From Streptomyces sp. SCUT-3 (GTDB taxonomy: Bacteria > Actinomycetota > Actinomycetes > Streptomycetales > Streptomycetaceae): a DNA stretch of 64,000 bases. Below the pieces are notes generated by a model. That model ran no database searches, was not told the DNA's origin, and saw only the letters and a program-made list of their open reading frames with translations. Position 1 is the stretch's first letter. The number at the start of each line of letters is the position of its first letter. Location of the stretch: contig NZ_CP046907.1 in NCBI RefSeq assembly GCF_014083985.1, forward strand, positions 2,956,001-3,020,000, in the 5' to 3' direction. A program made the position numbers and the translations under genes. This document shows positions 1 to 2,991 of the stretch, one piece after another.

Positions 1-75
1 GTGGCACCCAAGGCGCGGGAGGAACTGAGCGCGCGCCTGGCCGTGAAGAACAACAACAGCCGGGTCGGCCTGTGA
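1..75 (+). CDS. 3' end of an unidentified protein, cut by the window edge
   Basis: Only 24 codons are visible, ending in NNNSRVGL and a TGA stop. A GTG stands at base 1 but the gene may well begin upstream of the window. The stop overlaps the ATG of the next gene (TGATG), so this reading frame is very probably the preceding member of the operon that runs to the acetyltransferase gene. Too little is visible to name a family. Confidence 0.5.
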   Translation: MAPKAREELSARLAVKNNNSRVGL

Positions 76-314
76 TGCGCGTCATCGGCCGGTACGTCGG
101 CGTCCTCCTCGGAGACGTGATCACGATCGGCGGAAACCCGCACGCCGTGACGAACGTGCGGCGGGTCGCGGGCGGGCGAAAGGTCCTGGAGTTCGCCGAC
201 GGCAACGTCTACGTCCTGGGCCCTTCGCTTCCCATCCAGGTCATGCGGACGTCGCGGACGCCGGTGCGGCTCGTGGCCGGACGAGACGGACTCGCCCGCG
301 TGGCCCTGTCCTGA
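75..314 (+). CDS. small hypothetical protein, 79 aa
   Basis: Not recognised. A 79-residue product rich in beta-branched residues with a pattern of short beta strands (VGVLLGDVITIGG, KVLEFADGNVYVLG), suggesting a small all-beta, SH3-like fold; that is inference from composition only. The ATG overlaps the stop of the preceding frame in a TGATG arrangement, which favours it over the GTG one codon upstream. It lies 27 bases before the zinc-knuckle gene and is probably cotranscribed with the radical SAM gene. No signal peptide or membrane segment is visible. It could be a leader-binding or scaffold protein for the peptide encoded downstream, but nothing in the sequence proves it. Confidence 0.6.
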   Translation: MRVIGRYVGVLLGDVITIGGNPHAVTNVRRVAGGRKVLEFADGNVYVLGPSLPIQVMRTSRTPVRLVAGRDGLARVALS

Positions 315-341
315 TCCTTCTTCTGCACGGAGGTTCCCTGC

Positions 342-545
342 GTGGCAACTGCACCATCCGCTCTGACCCAGTGCCCTCTCCCTCCTCGCAACGAGAGCTG
401 CGGGGACTGCGGCGGCAGCGGTGTCGACTCGTCCGGCAAGAGCTGCGGCACCTGCAACGGGCTCGGCGAGATCTACTGCCGCGTCGCCGACCGCCAGGGC
501 GTACGCGTGCCGTCGCGCTTCTCGATCCGGAAGGAATACCACTGA
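342..545 (+). CDS. small Cys/Gly zinc-knuckle protein (DnaJ-type CxxCxGxG repeats), 67 aa
   Basis: A 67-residue protein holding two copies of a CxxCxGxG-like motif, CGDCGGSG and CGTCNGLG, the pattern that binds zinc in the central domain of DnaJ; two copies are enough for one zinc site. The rest of DnaJ (J domain, C-terminal domain) is absent. The GTG start is preceded by a strong GGAGGT at 329-334 with 7-base spacing. The TGA stop overlaps the ATG of the radical SAM gene (TGATG), so the two are translationally coupled. A plausible role is binding the precursor peptide or chaperoning the enzyme or its iron-sulphur clusters; this is inferred from position only. Confidence 0.75.
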   Translation: MATAPSALTQCPLPPRNESCGDCGGSGVDSSGKSCGTCNGLGEIYCRVADRQGVRVPSRFSIRKEYH

Positions 546-1669
546 TGGCCCACGCTCTGATCGCCTCCCCGTTCCTTGACGGGCATCTGCTCCTCAAGCC
601 TGGTGCCAGGGCTGGGGCTCGCATCCCCGCCGACCACTACGAGGGCCTGCGGCAGGCCGCTGCCGACGGTGAGGTCCTGCCCACCTGGGCGGTGCAGACC
701 GCATCCGACGTGTGGGGCATCGACCTGAACGGCCGGCCCGCGCAGGGCACGGTGCTGGTGCGCGAGCCGTCCCCGTACGGCTACTGCCGGGCCTCGTGGG
801 AGATCAACCTCGGTTGCAACTTCGGCTGCAAGCACTGCTACCTCGGCGAGCGCCCCTTCTCCGGCCTCGACTGGGAGGACAAGGTGCGGCTGCTGGACAT
901 CATGCGCGAGGCTGGCGTCCTCTGGCTCCAGATCACGGGCGGTGAGCCCACCATGGATCCGGACTTCCAGGGTGCCTACCGGTACGCCTGGCAGGCCGGG
1001 ATGATGCTCACCATCTCCACGAACGGCTCGCTGCTCTGGCGGCCGGACCTCCTCAAGCTCTTCCGGGACTCTCCGCCGTACCGCCTGGTGGTCAGCATGT
1101 ACGGGGCGAGCGAGGAGTCCTTCGACGCGCTCACCCAGCGCCGTGGTGCGTGGAAGGCGTTCCGGCGCGGTATGGACGCCGCACGCGAGGCGGGCTTGCC
1201 CCTGCGTATCAACGTCGTGGTGACGGAGGACAACGCCTCCGAGGCGGACGAGATGGCTGCCCTCGCCAATGAGTGGAACGTCGAGAACCACGCCTACACG
1301 AACATGACGCCCACGATCTATGGCGGCGGCGAACCGCTCCTTGCTCAGTCCGCCGCGCATCTGCGGCAGCGCAAGGCGTTCGCCGGCTGCAACGCGGGAC
1401 ACACCTTCTTCCACGCCGACCCGCACGCCAAGGTGTCGATCTGCAAGGTCGGCCGAGACGACCAGATCGACCTCATGGCCGAAGGCATCGACGGCCTCAC
1501 CCGGCTCGGCGCCATCGCCGACCACCTCATGCTTCGCACCGGAGGGTGCGAGGGCTGCGCCCTGTCCGGCACCTGCCGGGTCTGCCGCCCCCTGGCCAAG
1601 CACTACCAGGAGGCGAAGGCGCCGCTGCACAGCTACTGCCGGCACGGAGACAAGGAGAACGCCTCATGA
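545..1669 (+). CDS. radical SAM / SPASM-type peptide-modifying enzyme, 374 aa
   Basis: Residues 91-98 read CNFGCKHC, the CX3CX2C motif that binds the S-adenosylmethionine [4Fe-4S] cluster, followed by an ITGGEPT stretch (the GGE motif contacting SAM). The C-terminal part carries a Cys-rich region (AGCN, SICKVG, CEGCALSGTCRVC, final SYC) typical of SPASM/twitch auxiliary-cluster domains found in RiPP maturases and anaerobic sulfatase maturases. The first 80 residues have no obvious winged-helix peptide-recognition element. The ATG overlaps the zinc-knuckle stop, and its own stop overlaps the ATG of the 54-aa peptide (ATGA). The family assignment is firm. The substrate is inferred to be the adjacent peptide. 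Confidence 0.88.
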   Translation: MAHALIASPFLDGHLLLKPGARAGARIPADHYEGLRQAAADGEVLPTWAVQTASDVWGIDLNGRPAQGTVLVREPSPYGYCRASWEINLGCNFGCKHCYLGERPFSGLDWEDKVRLLDIMREAGVLWLQITGGEPTMDPDFQGAYRYAWQAGMMLTISTNGSLLWRPDLLKLFRDSPPYRLVVSMYGASEESFDALTQRRGAWKAFRRGMDAAREAGLPLRINVVVTEDNASEADEMAALANEWNVENHAYTNMTPTIYGGGEPLLAQSAAHLRQRKAFAGCNAGHTFFHADPHAKVSICKVGRDDQIDLMAEGIDGLTRLGAIADHLMLRTGGCEGCALSGTCRVCRPLAKHYQEAKAPLHSYCRHGDKENAS

Positions 1670-1830
1670 CCCCGCCCGTACCGGTGACCATCCTCCCCAG
1701 CCCGCCGGCCTCGGCGCGCCGCGCGGCCCCGCCCGTCGCCGCTTCGGCGGTCACCGCCGTCCTGGACCTGGACGTGGTCGTGGAGAGCGCGGAATGCTCC
1801 TGCGATGCCGGTGACGACAACCCCCACTAA
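1666..1830 (+). CDS. candidate RiPP precursor peptide, 54 aa, C-terminal CSCDAGDDNPH
   Basis: A short frame whose ATG overlaps the radical SAM stop (ATGA) and is preceded by AAGGAG at 1652-1657 with 8-base spacing, so its translation is well supported. Residues 1-32 are rich in Pro, Ala and Val; residues 33-43 read LDLDVVVESAE, which resembles the FxLD/FNLD leader boxes of lanthipeptide-type precursors; the last 11 residues are CSCDAGDDNPH. Cysteines occur only in this tail (C44, C46). There is no dehydratase or cyclase gene nearby, so thioether or C-C crosslinks made by the radical SAM enzyme are more likely than lanthionines. Role is inferred from position and layout; no known RiPP class is recognised with certainty. 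Confidence 0.65.
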   Translation: MTPPVPVTILPSPPASARRAAPPVAASAVTAVLDLDVVVESAECSCDAGDDNPH

Positions 1831-1918
1831 CCGACAGAATCCGATCGGTTCCGCTCAGGCCCTGGCGTATTCGCGTCGGGGCCTGAGGCCTGGCCGACCG
1901 ACCGTTAAGGTGCCGCTC

Positions 1919-2788
1919 ATGTTTTTCCGCTGGGACTGGCTCCGGCCCGTATTGACCGCGCCGATCGTGCCGACTCTCGGCCCCGTCCACCCCCACGTCC
2001 TCACCGTGGATCTCTTCGAGGACACGCTGCGGGCGGCCGTCGCTGATTGTTCCTTCCTGCACTACGACAAGGATCGGCGTTGGAGCAGTGAGAAGGACGA
2101 GACGGTTCTTTGTGGCGACGTGGTCCACCAGTCCGATCACACCCTCATCCCCACGCTGACCCGACGCGGACGTGGCACCGTCAAGGTCTTCGCCTACGGG
2201 CACCGTGACAGCGTCGTGGACGATGCGGCCGAACTGTCTGCGAAGCTCGCCGTCGTGCATGACGTGGTCAACGCGAGGGTCGTGCGCCCGCTCGGTCCTG
2301 AAACCGGATTCCCGCGCGGCACCCGCATCCAGCTTCAGGACTTCACCGCCCGCCCCTGCCCCGATCCTGGCGGCCCGGTCCGGCCCGTCACCGACTGGCC
2401 GGACGCTGTGCAAGAGACCTTTGCCCCGTTCGCCTCGGTCATGGCCGCCGATGGCCTGGCCTTCCTTCATGGGCGGATGCAGGCCGGCCGGTGCGGCCCG
2501 GTCCTCGCTGCCGCCGTGGACGGTCGCATCGTGGGCGCGATCGGCCCGATGGAAGTGCGCCCCGACGCGGTCGGCTGCCCCCAGCTCATGCCCCAGTACT
2601 TCGCCGTCCTGCCCGAGGCGCGGGGGCAGGGCCTCGGGCGTGTTCTGTGGCGGGCTGCGATGCACTGGGGTCAGTCCCATGGAGCCGCTTACCAGCTCCT
2701 GCAGACCGAGGTCGGTGGTCCCTCCGACAGGCTGTGCCGGTCCGAAGGGCTGACCTCCCTCGGCTTCAGCCACACCACACGGCCGTAG
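1919..2788 (+). CDS. GNAT-family N-acetyltransferase with long N-terminal extension, 289 aa
   Basis: The last third contains a GNAT fold: a VAAIVGAIGP-like strand region, then YFAVLPEARGQGLGRVLW, in which RGQGLG is the Q/RxxGxG/A acetyl-CoA pyrophosphate-binding loop (about residues 233-240). The first 150 residues are not recognised. An ATG with TAAGG 8 bases upstream is chosen; the frame is open further upstream, overlapping the peptide gene, but that extension has no ribosome site and would read MPVTTTPTNRQ. The gene follows the putative peptide gene by 88 bases in the same direction, so it may acetylate the mature peptide, either as a tailoring step or as self-protection. It could also be an unrelated acetyltransferase. 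Confidence 0.75.
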   Translation: MFFRWDWLRPVLTAPIVPTLGPVHPHVLTVDLFEDTLRAAVADCSFLHYDKDRRWSSEKDETVLCGDVVHQSDHTLIPTLTRRGRGTVKVFAYGHRDSVVDDAAELSAKLAVVHDVVNARVVRPLGPETGFPRGTRIQLQDFTARPCPDPGGPVRPVTDWPDAVQETFAPFASVMAADGLAFLHGRMQAGRCGPVLAAAVDGRIVGAIGPMEVRPDAVGCPQLMPQYFAVLPEARGQGLGRVLWRAAMHWGQSHGAAYQLLQTEVGGPSDRLCRSEGLTSLGFSHTTRP

Positions 2789-2829: not shown

Positions 2830-2991
2830 AACCGCCGTGAGCACGGCGGCGACCTGTCGGCGGCCGCCGGTGCGGGTACGGGCGAGGGGGACGGGGCCGA
2901 CGGTGTCCTCGATCCCGAGGCCGGGATGCGCCTGAAGTCGGAGGAGTTCGCCGCCAACGGCAACCGCGTCTACCTGCCGCTGGCCGACTGA
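2830..2991 (+). pseudogene. possible 3' remnant of a truncated gene
   Basis: Between the acetyltransferase stop and the following hairpin, one frame reads into DPEAGMRLKSEEF and ends NRVYLPLAD before TGA, a composition typical of a genuine protein C terminus, but no start codon with a ribosome site precedes it. It is followed directly by a strong terminator-like hairpin. I read it as the tail of a gene whose front was removed when the upstream operon arrived; the family is unknown. It could also be chance. Confidence 0.35.

What the first reader, a model, noticed from the sequence alone, without database searches (positions are those of the whole stretch)
75..2788. Candidate new RiPP-type cluster: zinc-knuckle protein, radical SAM enzyme, 54-aa peptide, GNAT
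Seen: five coupled frames; the peptide's ATG overlaps the radical SAM stop and has its own ribosome site. The peptide's only two cysteines are in the last 11 residues (CSCDAGDDNPH) behind an LDLD motif like FxLD leader boxes. Known: radical SAM/SPASM enzymes often modify an adjacent short peptide. Inference: the enzyme crosslinks Cys with an acidic or Gly/Asn residue in the tail, and the acetyltransferase tailors or protects. I cannot place it in a named RiPP class.
Basis: partly seen in the sequence, partly recalled or inferred. Interest (0 to 1): 0.85.

Follow-up and report, generated by a model that had tools for sequence, protein, structure and literature searches.

The report
Mobile radical-SAM modified-peptide cassette
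A small gene cassette of soil bacteria, also carried by phages and plasmids, encodes a short peptide with an almost unchanging tail beside the radical enzyme that very probably modifies it and a second enzyme (acetyl- or phosphate-transferring) whose kind goes with the peptide's last letters; it looks like an undescribed family of ribosomal peptide products.

Summary
A short peptide with a recognisable tail directly follows the rSAM gene in 158 of 160 loci with a full-length homologue. Leader and spacer vary; the tail hardly does (pN/pS 0.01 against 0.37-0.66 in close relatives). The rSAM model has an RRE-like N-terminus; its best full-length matches are the RiPP maturases SkfB and SuiB. A RiPP-type pair is well supported; no product is shown.

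Corrections and additions: 117 of 157 peptides have CxC, always as C-x3-[D/E]; 40 have one Cys. The zinc-knuckle gene is confined to near relatives. The GNAT is not coupled: a hairpin and a leaderless-type promoter precede it (37 of 39, against 4% of shuffles). Elsewhere an APH-like kinase replaces or joins the GNAT; the residue after the tail's Pro is then always Tyr, otherwise His, Phe or Asn (three Tyr exceptions), on few independent changes. The family occurs in a phage, plasmids and viral contigs; here it lies between two thiC 3' ends. My paper searches found no description; the library is partial.

The parts
75..314 (+). 79-aa frame of unknown function, accessory
   Evidence: hits in 7 of 90 loci at E<=1; no Pfam hit at E<=0.01
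342..545 (+). 67-aa zinc-knuckle protein (DnaJ-type CxxCxGxG motifs), accessory of the near subfamily
   Evidence: (E 0.011, below the Pfam cutoff)
545..1669 (+). radical SAM/SPASM maturase with an N-terminal RRE-like domain (residues about 1-75)
   Evidence: (CX3CX2C and seven SPASM-type Cys invariant in 26 rows)
1666..1830 (+). 54-aa precursor peptide: N-terminal box (VPVTI), Pro/Ala-rich spacer, LDLD box, conserved tail
1795..1827 (+). conserved tail CSCDAGDDNPH (proposed modified core); Cys46 at 1801-1803 and Asp50 at 1813-1815 form C-x3-D
1854..1887 (+). hairpin between peptide and GNAT (9-bp perfect stem), terminator-like or processing site
1906..1911 (+). TAAGGT, -10-type box 7 nt before the GNAT ATG (leaderless-type promoter)
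1919..2788 (+). tandem-GNAT acetyltransferase, proposed to act on the peptide product (tailoring or protection)
2832..2991 (+). 160-bp exact copy of the 3' end of thiC, right border of the inserted stretch (left copy at G000 C1 2954201-2954360, outside the window)

Best explanation
This is a compact, mobile RiPP-type cassette of an undescribed family. Seen in the sequences: an rSAM/SPASM gene whose model begins with an RRE-like domain, followed at once by a peptide of about 38-74 aa with a variable leader and a strongly conserved tail, C-x-C-x3-[DE]-x-[NQ]-P-[HYNF] or G-C-x-[DNE]-D-N-P-[YF], and downstream an acetyltransferase and/or APH-like kinase, in nearly all GNAT loci behind a leaderless-type promoter. 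Inferred: the RRE binds the leader, and the rSAM oxidatively links the tail Cys (Cys46 here) to a carboxylate residue of the tail, most likely Asp50 of the C-x3-D motif (-2 Da). Inferred: the GNAT or kinase then acts on the modified tail, the kinase on the Tyr after Pro, either as a last tailoring step or, as the separate promoter suggests, as protection against the product. No exporter family is conserved beside it, so the product may act inside the cell or leave by general routes.
For: Peptide after the rSAM in 158 of 160 loci, in the window's family (70 of 394 genomes) and two further families (24 of 250 and 6 of 35). Tail pN/pS 0.01 against 0.37-0.66 in 25 distinct close sequences. RRE-like N-terminus, pLDDT blocks 89-97, and full-length matches to SkfB (Z 22.5, rmsd 5.5, 307 aligned) and SuiB (Z 21.6, rmsd 4.7, 311 aligned). 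117 of 117 CxC tails of the scored set are C-x3-[DE], with D and E exchanged as PapB accepts (PMC9413430, passages). Tyr after Pro in all 86 scored kinase loci; 33 of 85 of their tails hold no Ser or Thr. Leaderless-type promoter before the GNAT in 37 of 39, upstream shuffles 62 of 1560, peptide starts 0 of 101. No other clustered family of frames of 60 aa or more lies in over 13 of 100 loci besides rSAM, GNAT, kinase, regulators, NUDIX (23) and F4 (27).
Against: No chemistry was observed. 40 of 157 peptides have a single Cys in GCxDDNPY-type tails, where C-x3-[DE] does not hold, so one shared link is not obvious; L238 has CxC without it. The peptides were found with a tail pattern, which favours the columns then seen as constant. 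The Tyr-kinase link rests on 3-4 independent changes (none discordant; sign test p 0.125 and 0.25), and Tyr stands without a kinase found within 3 kb in L169, L228 and L229. In the single-Cys group the last 12 codons as a block are hardly more constrained than the rest (pN/pS 0.89). The auxiliary-cluster region of the rSAM model is weak (pLDDT under 60). A conserved tail could instead be a binding or degradation tag. Proteases were not searched for by name.
Confidence: 0.6

Rival explanations
1. The peptide is the scaffold of a small cofactor or signal, as in mycofactocin or PQQ: the rSAM alters the C-terminal residues (for example at N-P-[HYNF]), a short piece is cut out and the GNAT or kinase caps it. 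The Cys residues serve metal or cluster binding.
For: The conservation lies at the very C-terminus, with Pro in 92 of 92 dereplicated peptides (the search pattern demands it, and L238, found outside the pattern, has Val there); no exporter family conserved beside it; the mycofactocin rSAM model is among the closest of NCBIfam, 80.4 bits.
Against: Far below the mycofactocin cutoff (80.4 against 265 bits). No further gene family recurs that could use a cofactor, as far as clustering of unannotated frames shows. The phage carriage and patchy spread are unusual for a cofactor pathway (recalled, not tested).
Confidence: 0.15
2. Toxin and antidote: the rSAM-modified peptide is toxic to the cell, and the GNAT or kinase, transcribed on its own, inactivates it; the pair stabilises phages, plasmids and islands.
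For: Carriage by phage Success, phage-plasmid phiDSM40276, plasmids and 22 viral contigs, several of them near-identical; leaderless-type promoter of the GNAT and hairpin before it; exchange of acetyl- for phosphotransferase, as among aminoglycoside resistance enzymes (recalled); truncated copies such as L084 and L085.
Against: Toxicity is untested. In CxC loci with the kinase the promoter is not seen (1 of 33). Loci with neither enzyme exist (L119, L165).
Confidence: 0.2
3. The kinase of the relatives is a RiPP dehydratase part rather than a Tyr kinase: APH-family proteins serve dehydration and cyclisation of Ser/Thr in class V lanthipeptides, so it might phosphorylate Ser of the CSC motif.
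For: sprPT (PF01636) in the class V lanthipeptide cluster (PMC7794033, passages); 52 of 85 kinase tails hold Ser or Thr.
Against: 33 of 85 kinase tails hold none while Tyr is in all 85.
Confidence: 0.06
4. The peptide is a ligand or subunit of the neighbouring HTH-type regulator and the rSAM its modifier; no natural product.
For: 83 of 100 loci have a gene of one of five clustered regulator-like families within 4.5 kb upstream, 73 of them divergent; HTH nature of F2, F9 and F21 judged by eye.
Against: The families are unrelated in the clustering (F2 47, DUF5753 17, F9 12, F21 5, F26 3 loci) while the tail is constant.
Confidence: 0.08

Closest known systems
Ranthipeptides made by PapB (PapA/freyrasin)
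   Same: rSAM RiPP maturase with Cys-x3-Asp/Glu motif, Asp and Glu interchangeable (PMC9413430, passages)
   Different: One such motif at the C-terminus instead of six; a single-Cys branch without it; GNAT or APH-like kinase beside it; actinobacterial mobile elements
SuiB and SkfB maturases (streptide, sporulation killing factor)
   Same: Best full-length structural matches, aligned from residue 3, that is with the RRE-like part
   Different: 13-17% identity; the streptide Lys-Trp link (recalled) has no counterpart in these tails
Kinase-modified lasso peptides (paeninodin, PadeK)
   Same: A pathway kinase acts on the conserved C-terminal hydroxyl residue of a RiPP precursor (PMC9266682, passages)
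   Different: There Ser, here by inference Tyr; no lasso genes were noticed in the cassette; the kinase here is APH-like
Class V lanthipeptides with an APH-family protein (sprPT)
   Same: APH-family protein in a Streptomyces RiPP cluster (PMC7794033, passages)
   Different: There proposed for dehydration/cyclisation and without an rSAM in the gene table passages seen; here Tyr is the constant acceptor candidate
Mycofactocin system (MftA/MftC)
   Same: rSAM/SPASM and conserved precursor C-terminus (recalled)
   Different: Below the family cutoff; different tail; GNAT or kinase beside it

Membership tests
RiPP with rSAM maturase (general) | precursor gene next to a maturase, variable leader and conserved core | tested here: met
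   158 of 160 loci; pN/pS by segment
RiPP with rSAM maturase (general) | RiPP recognition element | tested here: met
   predicted three strands and helices at the N-terminus; alignments to SkfB and SuiB start at model residue 3; fold only, no binding test, no RRE family hit in Pfam
RiPP with rSAM maturase (general) | post-translational change of the core | not testable with these tools
   needs mass spectrometry
SPASM rSAM enzymes | CX3CX2C and auxiliary-cluster Cys | tested here: met
   invariant C91, C95, C98 and C282, C300, C335, C338, C344, C347, C365 in 26 rows
Ranthipeptide (PapB type) | Cys-x3-Asp/Glu in the core | tested here: inconclusive
   met in 117 of 117 CxC peptides of the scored set, absent in the 40 single-Cys ones and in L238
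Ranthipeptide (PapB type) | Cys thioether to a non-alpha carbon | not testable with these tools
   no chemistry
Mycofactocin | mycofactocin rSAM model (TIGR03962) above its cutoff | tested here: not met
   80.4 against 265 bits
Prokaryotic viperin | viperin model above its cutoff | tested here: not met
   NF038283 45.6 against 180 bits; PADLOC pVip 54.3 bits over residues 84-243
Sactipeptide StsB type | StsB model above its cutoff | tested here: not met
   61.1 against 625 bits
FxsB/FxSxx system | TIGR04269 match and FxSxx C-terminus (names recalled) | tested here: inconclusive
   the model is not among the 25 of 48 shown; the peptide does not end in FxSxx
APH-like kinase (accessory in relatives) | kinase residues K, E, HxDx4N, D | tested here: met
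   K53, E68, H160, N167, D179 invariant and D162 nearly so in 18 rows; PF01636 at E<=0.01 in 7 of 18

The most novel reading that the evidence does not exclude
A phage- and plasmid-borne toxin-antidote module whose toxin is a radical-SAM-crosslinked peptide and whose antidote is a separately transcribed enzyme that caps the peptide's last residues: an APH-fold kinase that phosphorylates the C-terminal Tyr, exchangeable for a tandem GNAT where the Tyr has become His, Phe or Asn.
Probability: 0.2. Interest if true: 0.88.

Novelty: new variant of a known kind. Interest (0 to 1): 0.74.

Why it matters
If true, it adds a family of ribosomal peptides found in about one in six sampled genomes of the window's family (70 of 394) and in two further actinobacterial families, with a core small enough to synthesise and a maturase that seems to carry its own leader-binding domain. 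The match between the last residue and the kinase makes it testable whether an APH-fold enzyme, known from antibiotic resistance and from lanthipeptide clusters, acts on a peptide Tyr. The phage carriage raises the question of what a virus gains from a modified peptide.

Tried and rejected
Viperin or other defence reading: the PADLOC and NCBIfam viperin scores cover the rSAM core, the NCBIfam one below its cutoff; the NUDIX frame beside the cassette matches PADLOC PDC-S07, E 1.9e-10, not followed up. Named NCBIfam rSAM families: none near its cutoff among the 25 shown of 48. PHROGs: no family for the two peptides tested. Solved relatives by sequence: rSAM only distant; F2 regulator and APH-like kinase none. 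The structural lists do not exclude other families. F2 as a peptide-sensing regulator was an idea from its sequence only and was not tested by fold.

Papers: searches gave listings and starts of abstracts. The tail strings DDNPH, GDDNPH, SAGDDNPH, CSCNAG, CSCDAG, CSCAAG, CGDDNPY, DDNPY, CSDDNPY, CNDDNPY, AGDDQPY, CSCSAG occurred in no paper on this subject, judged from the six titles listed. Passages were read of PMC9413430, PMC9266682 and PMC7794033. PMC7794033 reports Streptomyces RiPP candidates, some with rSAM genes, whose lists I could not see, so this family may be among them.

Dropped rows: one search left out 12 loci: 8 partial (L082, L084, L085, L086, L088, L089, L160, L223), 3 with stops inside (L071, L080, L153) and 1 short (L168). 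The tree also left out L087 (frameshifted, long branch). The scored 160 hold some genomes twice (for example L051/L204 and L042/L215, judged by equal contig lengths); 145 peptides are distinct, and rows over 90% alike with equal states were merged to 104 before the tree. First tree of 95 rows: 4 pairs concordant, 0 discordant, 1 without difference, p 0.125; larger tree 3, 0, 1, p 0.25. The 22 viral loci were not in these counts. A GNAT was counted only when it began within 1300 nt; L182 has a 36-residue GNAT-like fragment further on. The first peptide extractor mixed in wrong frames and was replaced. The pN/pS was biased by choosing rows on the tail and was redone. One stretch (protein 7) had wrong coordinates and is not used. 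The APH part used imprecise starts and was replaced. The consensus stem (from 39 of 57 distinct sequences listed) has 9 pairs, 3 of them with changes on both sides, weak on its own. The shuffles keep single-base content only. After the report check I added a Pfam scan of the frames between the thiC copies and a recount, named L238 and class V lanthipeptides, and lowered the main confidence from 0.62 to 0.60 for L238.
Full report
What is there. The rSAM frame ends in TGA at 1667-1669 and the peptide starts with ATG at 1666, behind AAGGAG at 1652-1657. A 137-aa frame runs in from outside the window, and a NUDIX gene (E 3e-20) and an HTH-like gene (below cutoffs) lie further out on the other strand.

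Is it a family? Yes. A protein search found the rSAM in 65 of 297 family genomes, some copies partial, and 59 loci in named genomes. A profile found it in 70 of 394 family genomes, 17 of 394 class genomes, 24 of 250 and 6 of 35 genomes of two further families, and 35 of 327 of one order, overlapping the former. After fetching flanks, 160 loci with a full-length rSAM were scored and 12 were left out. A tail-bearing peptide follows in 157 by pattern, plus L176 by eye (tail ...DDAPY). L044 reads on without a stop and L158 ends 158 nt behind the rSAM. With the starts I chose, 107 of 157 peptides overlap the rSAM stop by four bases.

Anatomy of the peptide. In 92 dereplicated peptides the columns before the Pro are the most constant: D in 84 and 85 of 92 at -3 and -2, N or Q in 90 of 92 at -1; the search pattern fixes the Pro and favours its neighbours. 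69 have CxC, all as C-x3-[DE]; 23 have one Cys. Over all 157: 117 CxC, all C-x3-[DE], and 40 with a single Cys. Outside the pattern L238 ends CSCTASSDQVYNN. A D-[LVIM]-D box lies about 10 residues before the tail in most (D 62 and 71 of 92 at -19 and -17). In 26 close loci chosen by rSAM identity and peptide length, not by tail (25 distinct sequences), pN/pS is 0.66, 0.37, 0.42 and then 0.01 in the last 12 codons. In a more distant CxC group, chosen by its QPY tail, it is 0.35 in the tail against 0.94-0.97; in the single-Cys group 0.89 against 0.98-1.03, where the 12 codons include residues before the Cys.

The enzyme. CX3CX2C and seven further Cys in SPASM spacing are invariant in 26 rows. 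The model (mean pLDDT 83.5) begins with three strands and helices, the RRE arrangement. Its best full-length matches are SkfB (Z 22.5, rmsd 5.5, 307 aligned) and SuiB (Z 21.6, rmsd 4.7, 311 aligned), while most other rows begin at residue 76-81. The C-terminal cluster region is of low confidence.

The third gene. In the window it is a tandem GNAT (model pLDDT 91.5; best match Z 13.4, mostly GNAT proteins). In many relatives an APH-like kinase stands there, with the kinase residues kept; three scored loci have both (L152, L155, L171). Among the 157 peptides the residue after Pro is Tyr in all 85 kinase loci and in one other (L169), and His (50), Phe (14) or Asn (7) in the other 71, none with a kinase; L176 adds a kinase locus with Tyr. 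Of 22 viral loci the 14 with a kinase end in Tyr at that place (in L238 after Val, in L234 after Ala-Pro); of the 8 with a GNAT five end in His, one in Phe (L230) and two near-identical ones in Tyr without a kinase found (L228, L229). L119 and L165, with neither enzyme, end in Phe. On the tree this is 3 to 4 independent concordant changes with none opposed, too few for significance. 33 of 85 kinase tails hold no Ser or Thr, so Tyr is the only shared hydroxyl acceptor there. I infer that the kinase acts on this Tyr. A kinase acting on a RiPP C-terminus is known for Ser in paeninodin (PMC9266682, passages), and an APH-family protein stands in a class V lanthipeptide cluster (PMC7794033, passages).

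Expression. Between peptide and third gene lies a hairpin with a perfect stem of 8 bp or more in 111 of 149 loci, against 53 of 745 shuffles. GNAT genes have TANNNT 6 or 7 nt before the ATG in 37 of 39 dereplicated loci, against 62 of 1560 shuffles; peptide starts 0 of 101; kinase genes 1 of 33 in CxC loci and 10 of 27 in single-Cys loci. That is the layout of leaderless transcripts in Streptomyces (recalled). So the GNAT is probably transcribed on its own, which fits protection better than plain tailoring, without proving it.

Mobility. Homologues are in Streptomyces phage Success (rSAM, 38-aa peptide ending GCGDDNPYN, kinase), in phage-plasmid phiDSM40276, in 8 records of the plasmid collection, two of them of one strain and one an 11.85-Mb record that is probably a chromosome, and in 22 IMG/VR contigs, several near-identical. 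In the window the cassette lies between two exact 160-bp copies of the thiC 3' end; in S. toyocaensis (L084) a truncated cassette lies between two thiC 3' ends that are 77% alike over 87 bp. This is what insertion at the end of thiC by an element bringing its own thiC tail would leave. The frames between the copies that I scanned gave no integrase.

Reading. A RiPP-type precursor and maturase pair is well supported. The C-x3-D link is the best guess for the CxC branch by analogy with PapB (PMC9413430, passages) and is open for the single-Cys branch. Tailoring, protection and toxin-antidote roles of the third gene remain to be separated. I found no description of the family in the paper searches named under Tried and rejected, but the library is partial.

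Noticed in passing
window 2832-2991 and G000 C1 2954201-2954360: 160-bp exact direct repeat of the thiC 3' end on both sides of a roughly 4.5-kb stretch; the frames scanned in it gave no integrase.
   Followed up: partly
L084 3250-6530: Streptomyces toyocaensis has the left part of the same cassette behind thiC, cut inside the rSAM gene and followed by a second thiC 3' end, 77% alike over 87 bp.
   Followed up: partly
L161 8998-11112: Phage Success carries rSAM, peptide and kinase as gp3-gp1 at one end of its genome; annotated only as oxidoreductase, hypothetical protein, kinase.
   Followed up: partly
L119 and L165, downstream of the rSAM: Loci with tails ending NDNPF or EDNPF have neither GNAT nor kinase but other small proteins; one that looks like that of L119 by eye follows the kinase in phiDSM40276 (L162 4281-4724).
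   Followed up: no
L031-L130, upstream of the rSAM: Regulator-like genes of different families (one with DUF5753, beside DUF397 or DUF6879 genes in some loci) occupy the same, mostly divergent place.
   Followed up: partly
G000 C1 about 2954508-2955083 (L090 8508-9083): The NUDIX gene on the other strand within the thiC-bordered stretch matches PADLOC candidate defence family PDC-S07 (E 1.9e-10).
   Followed up: no
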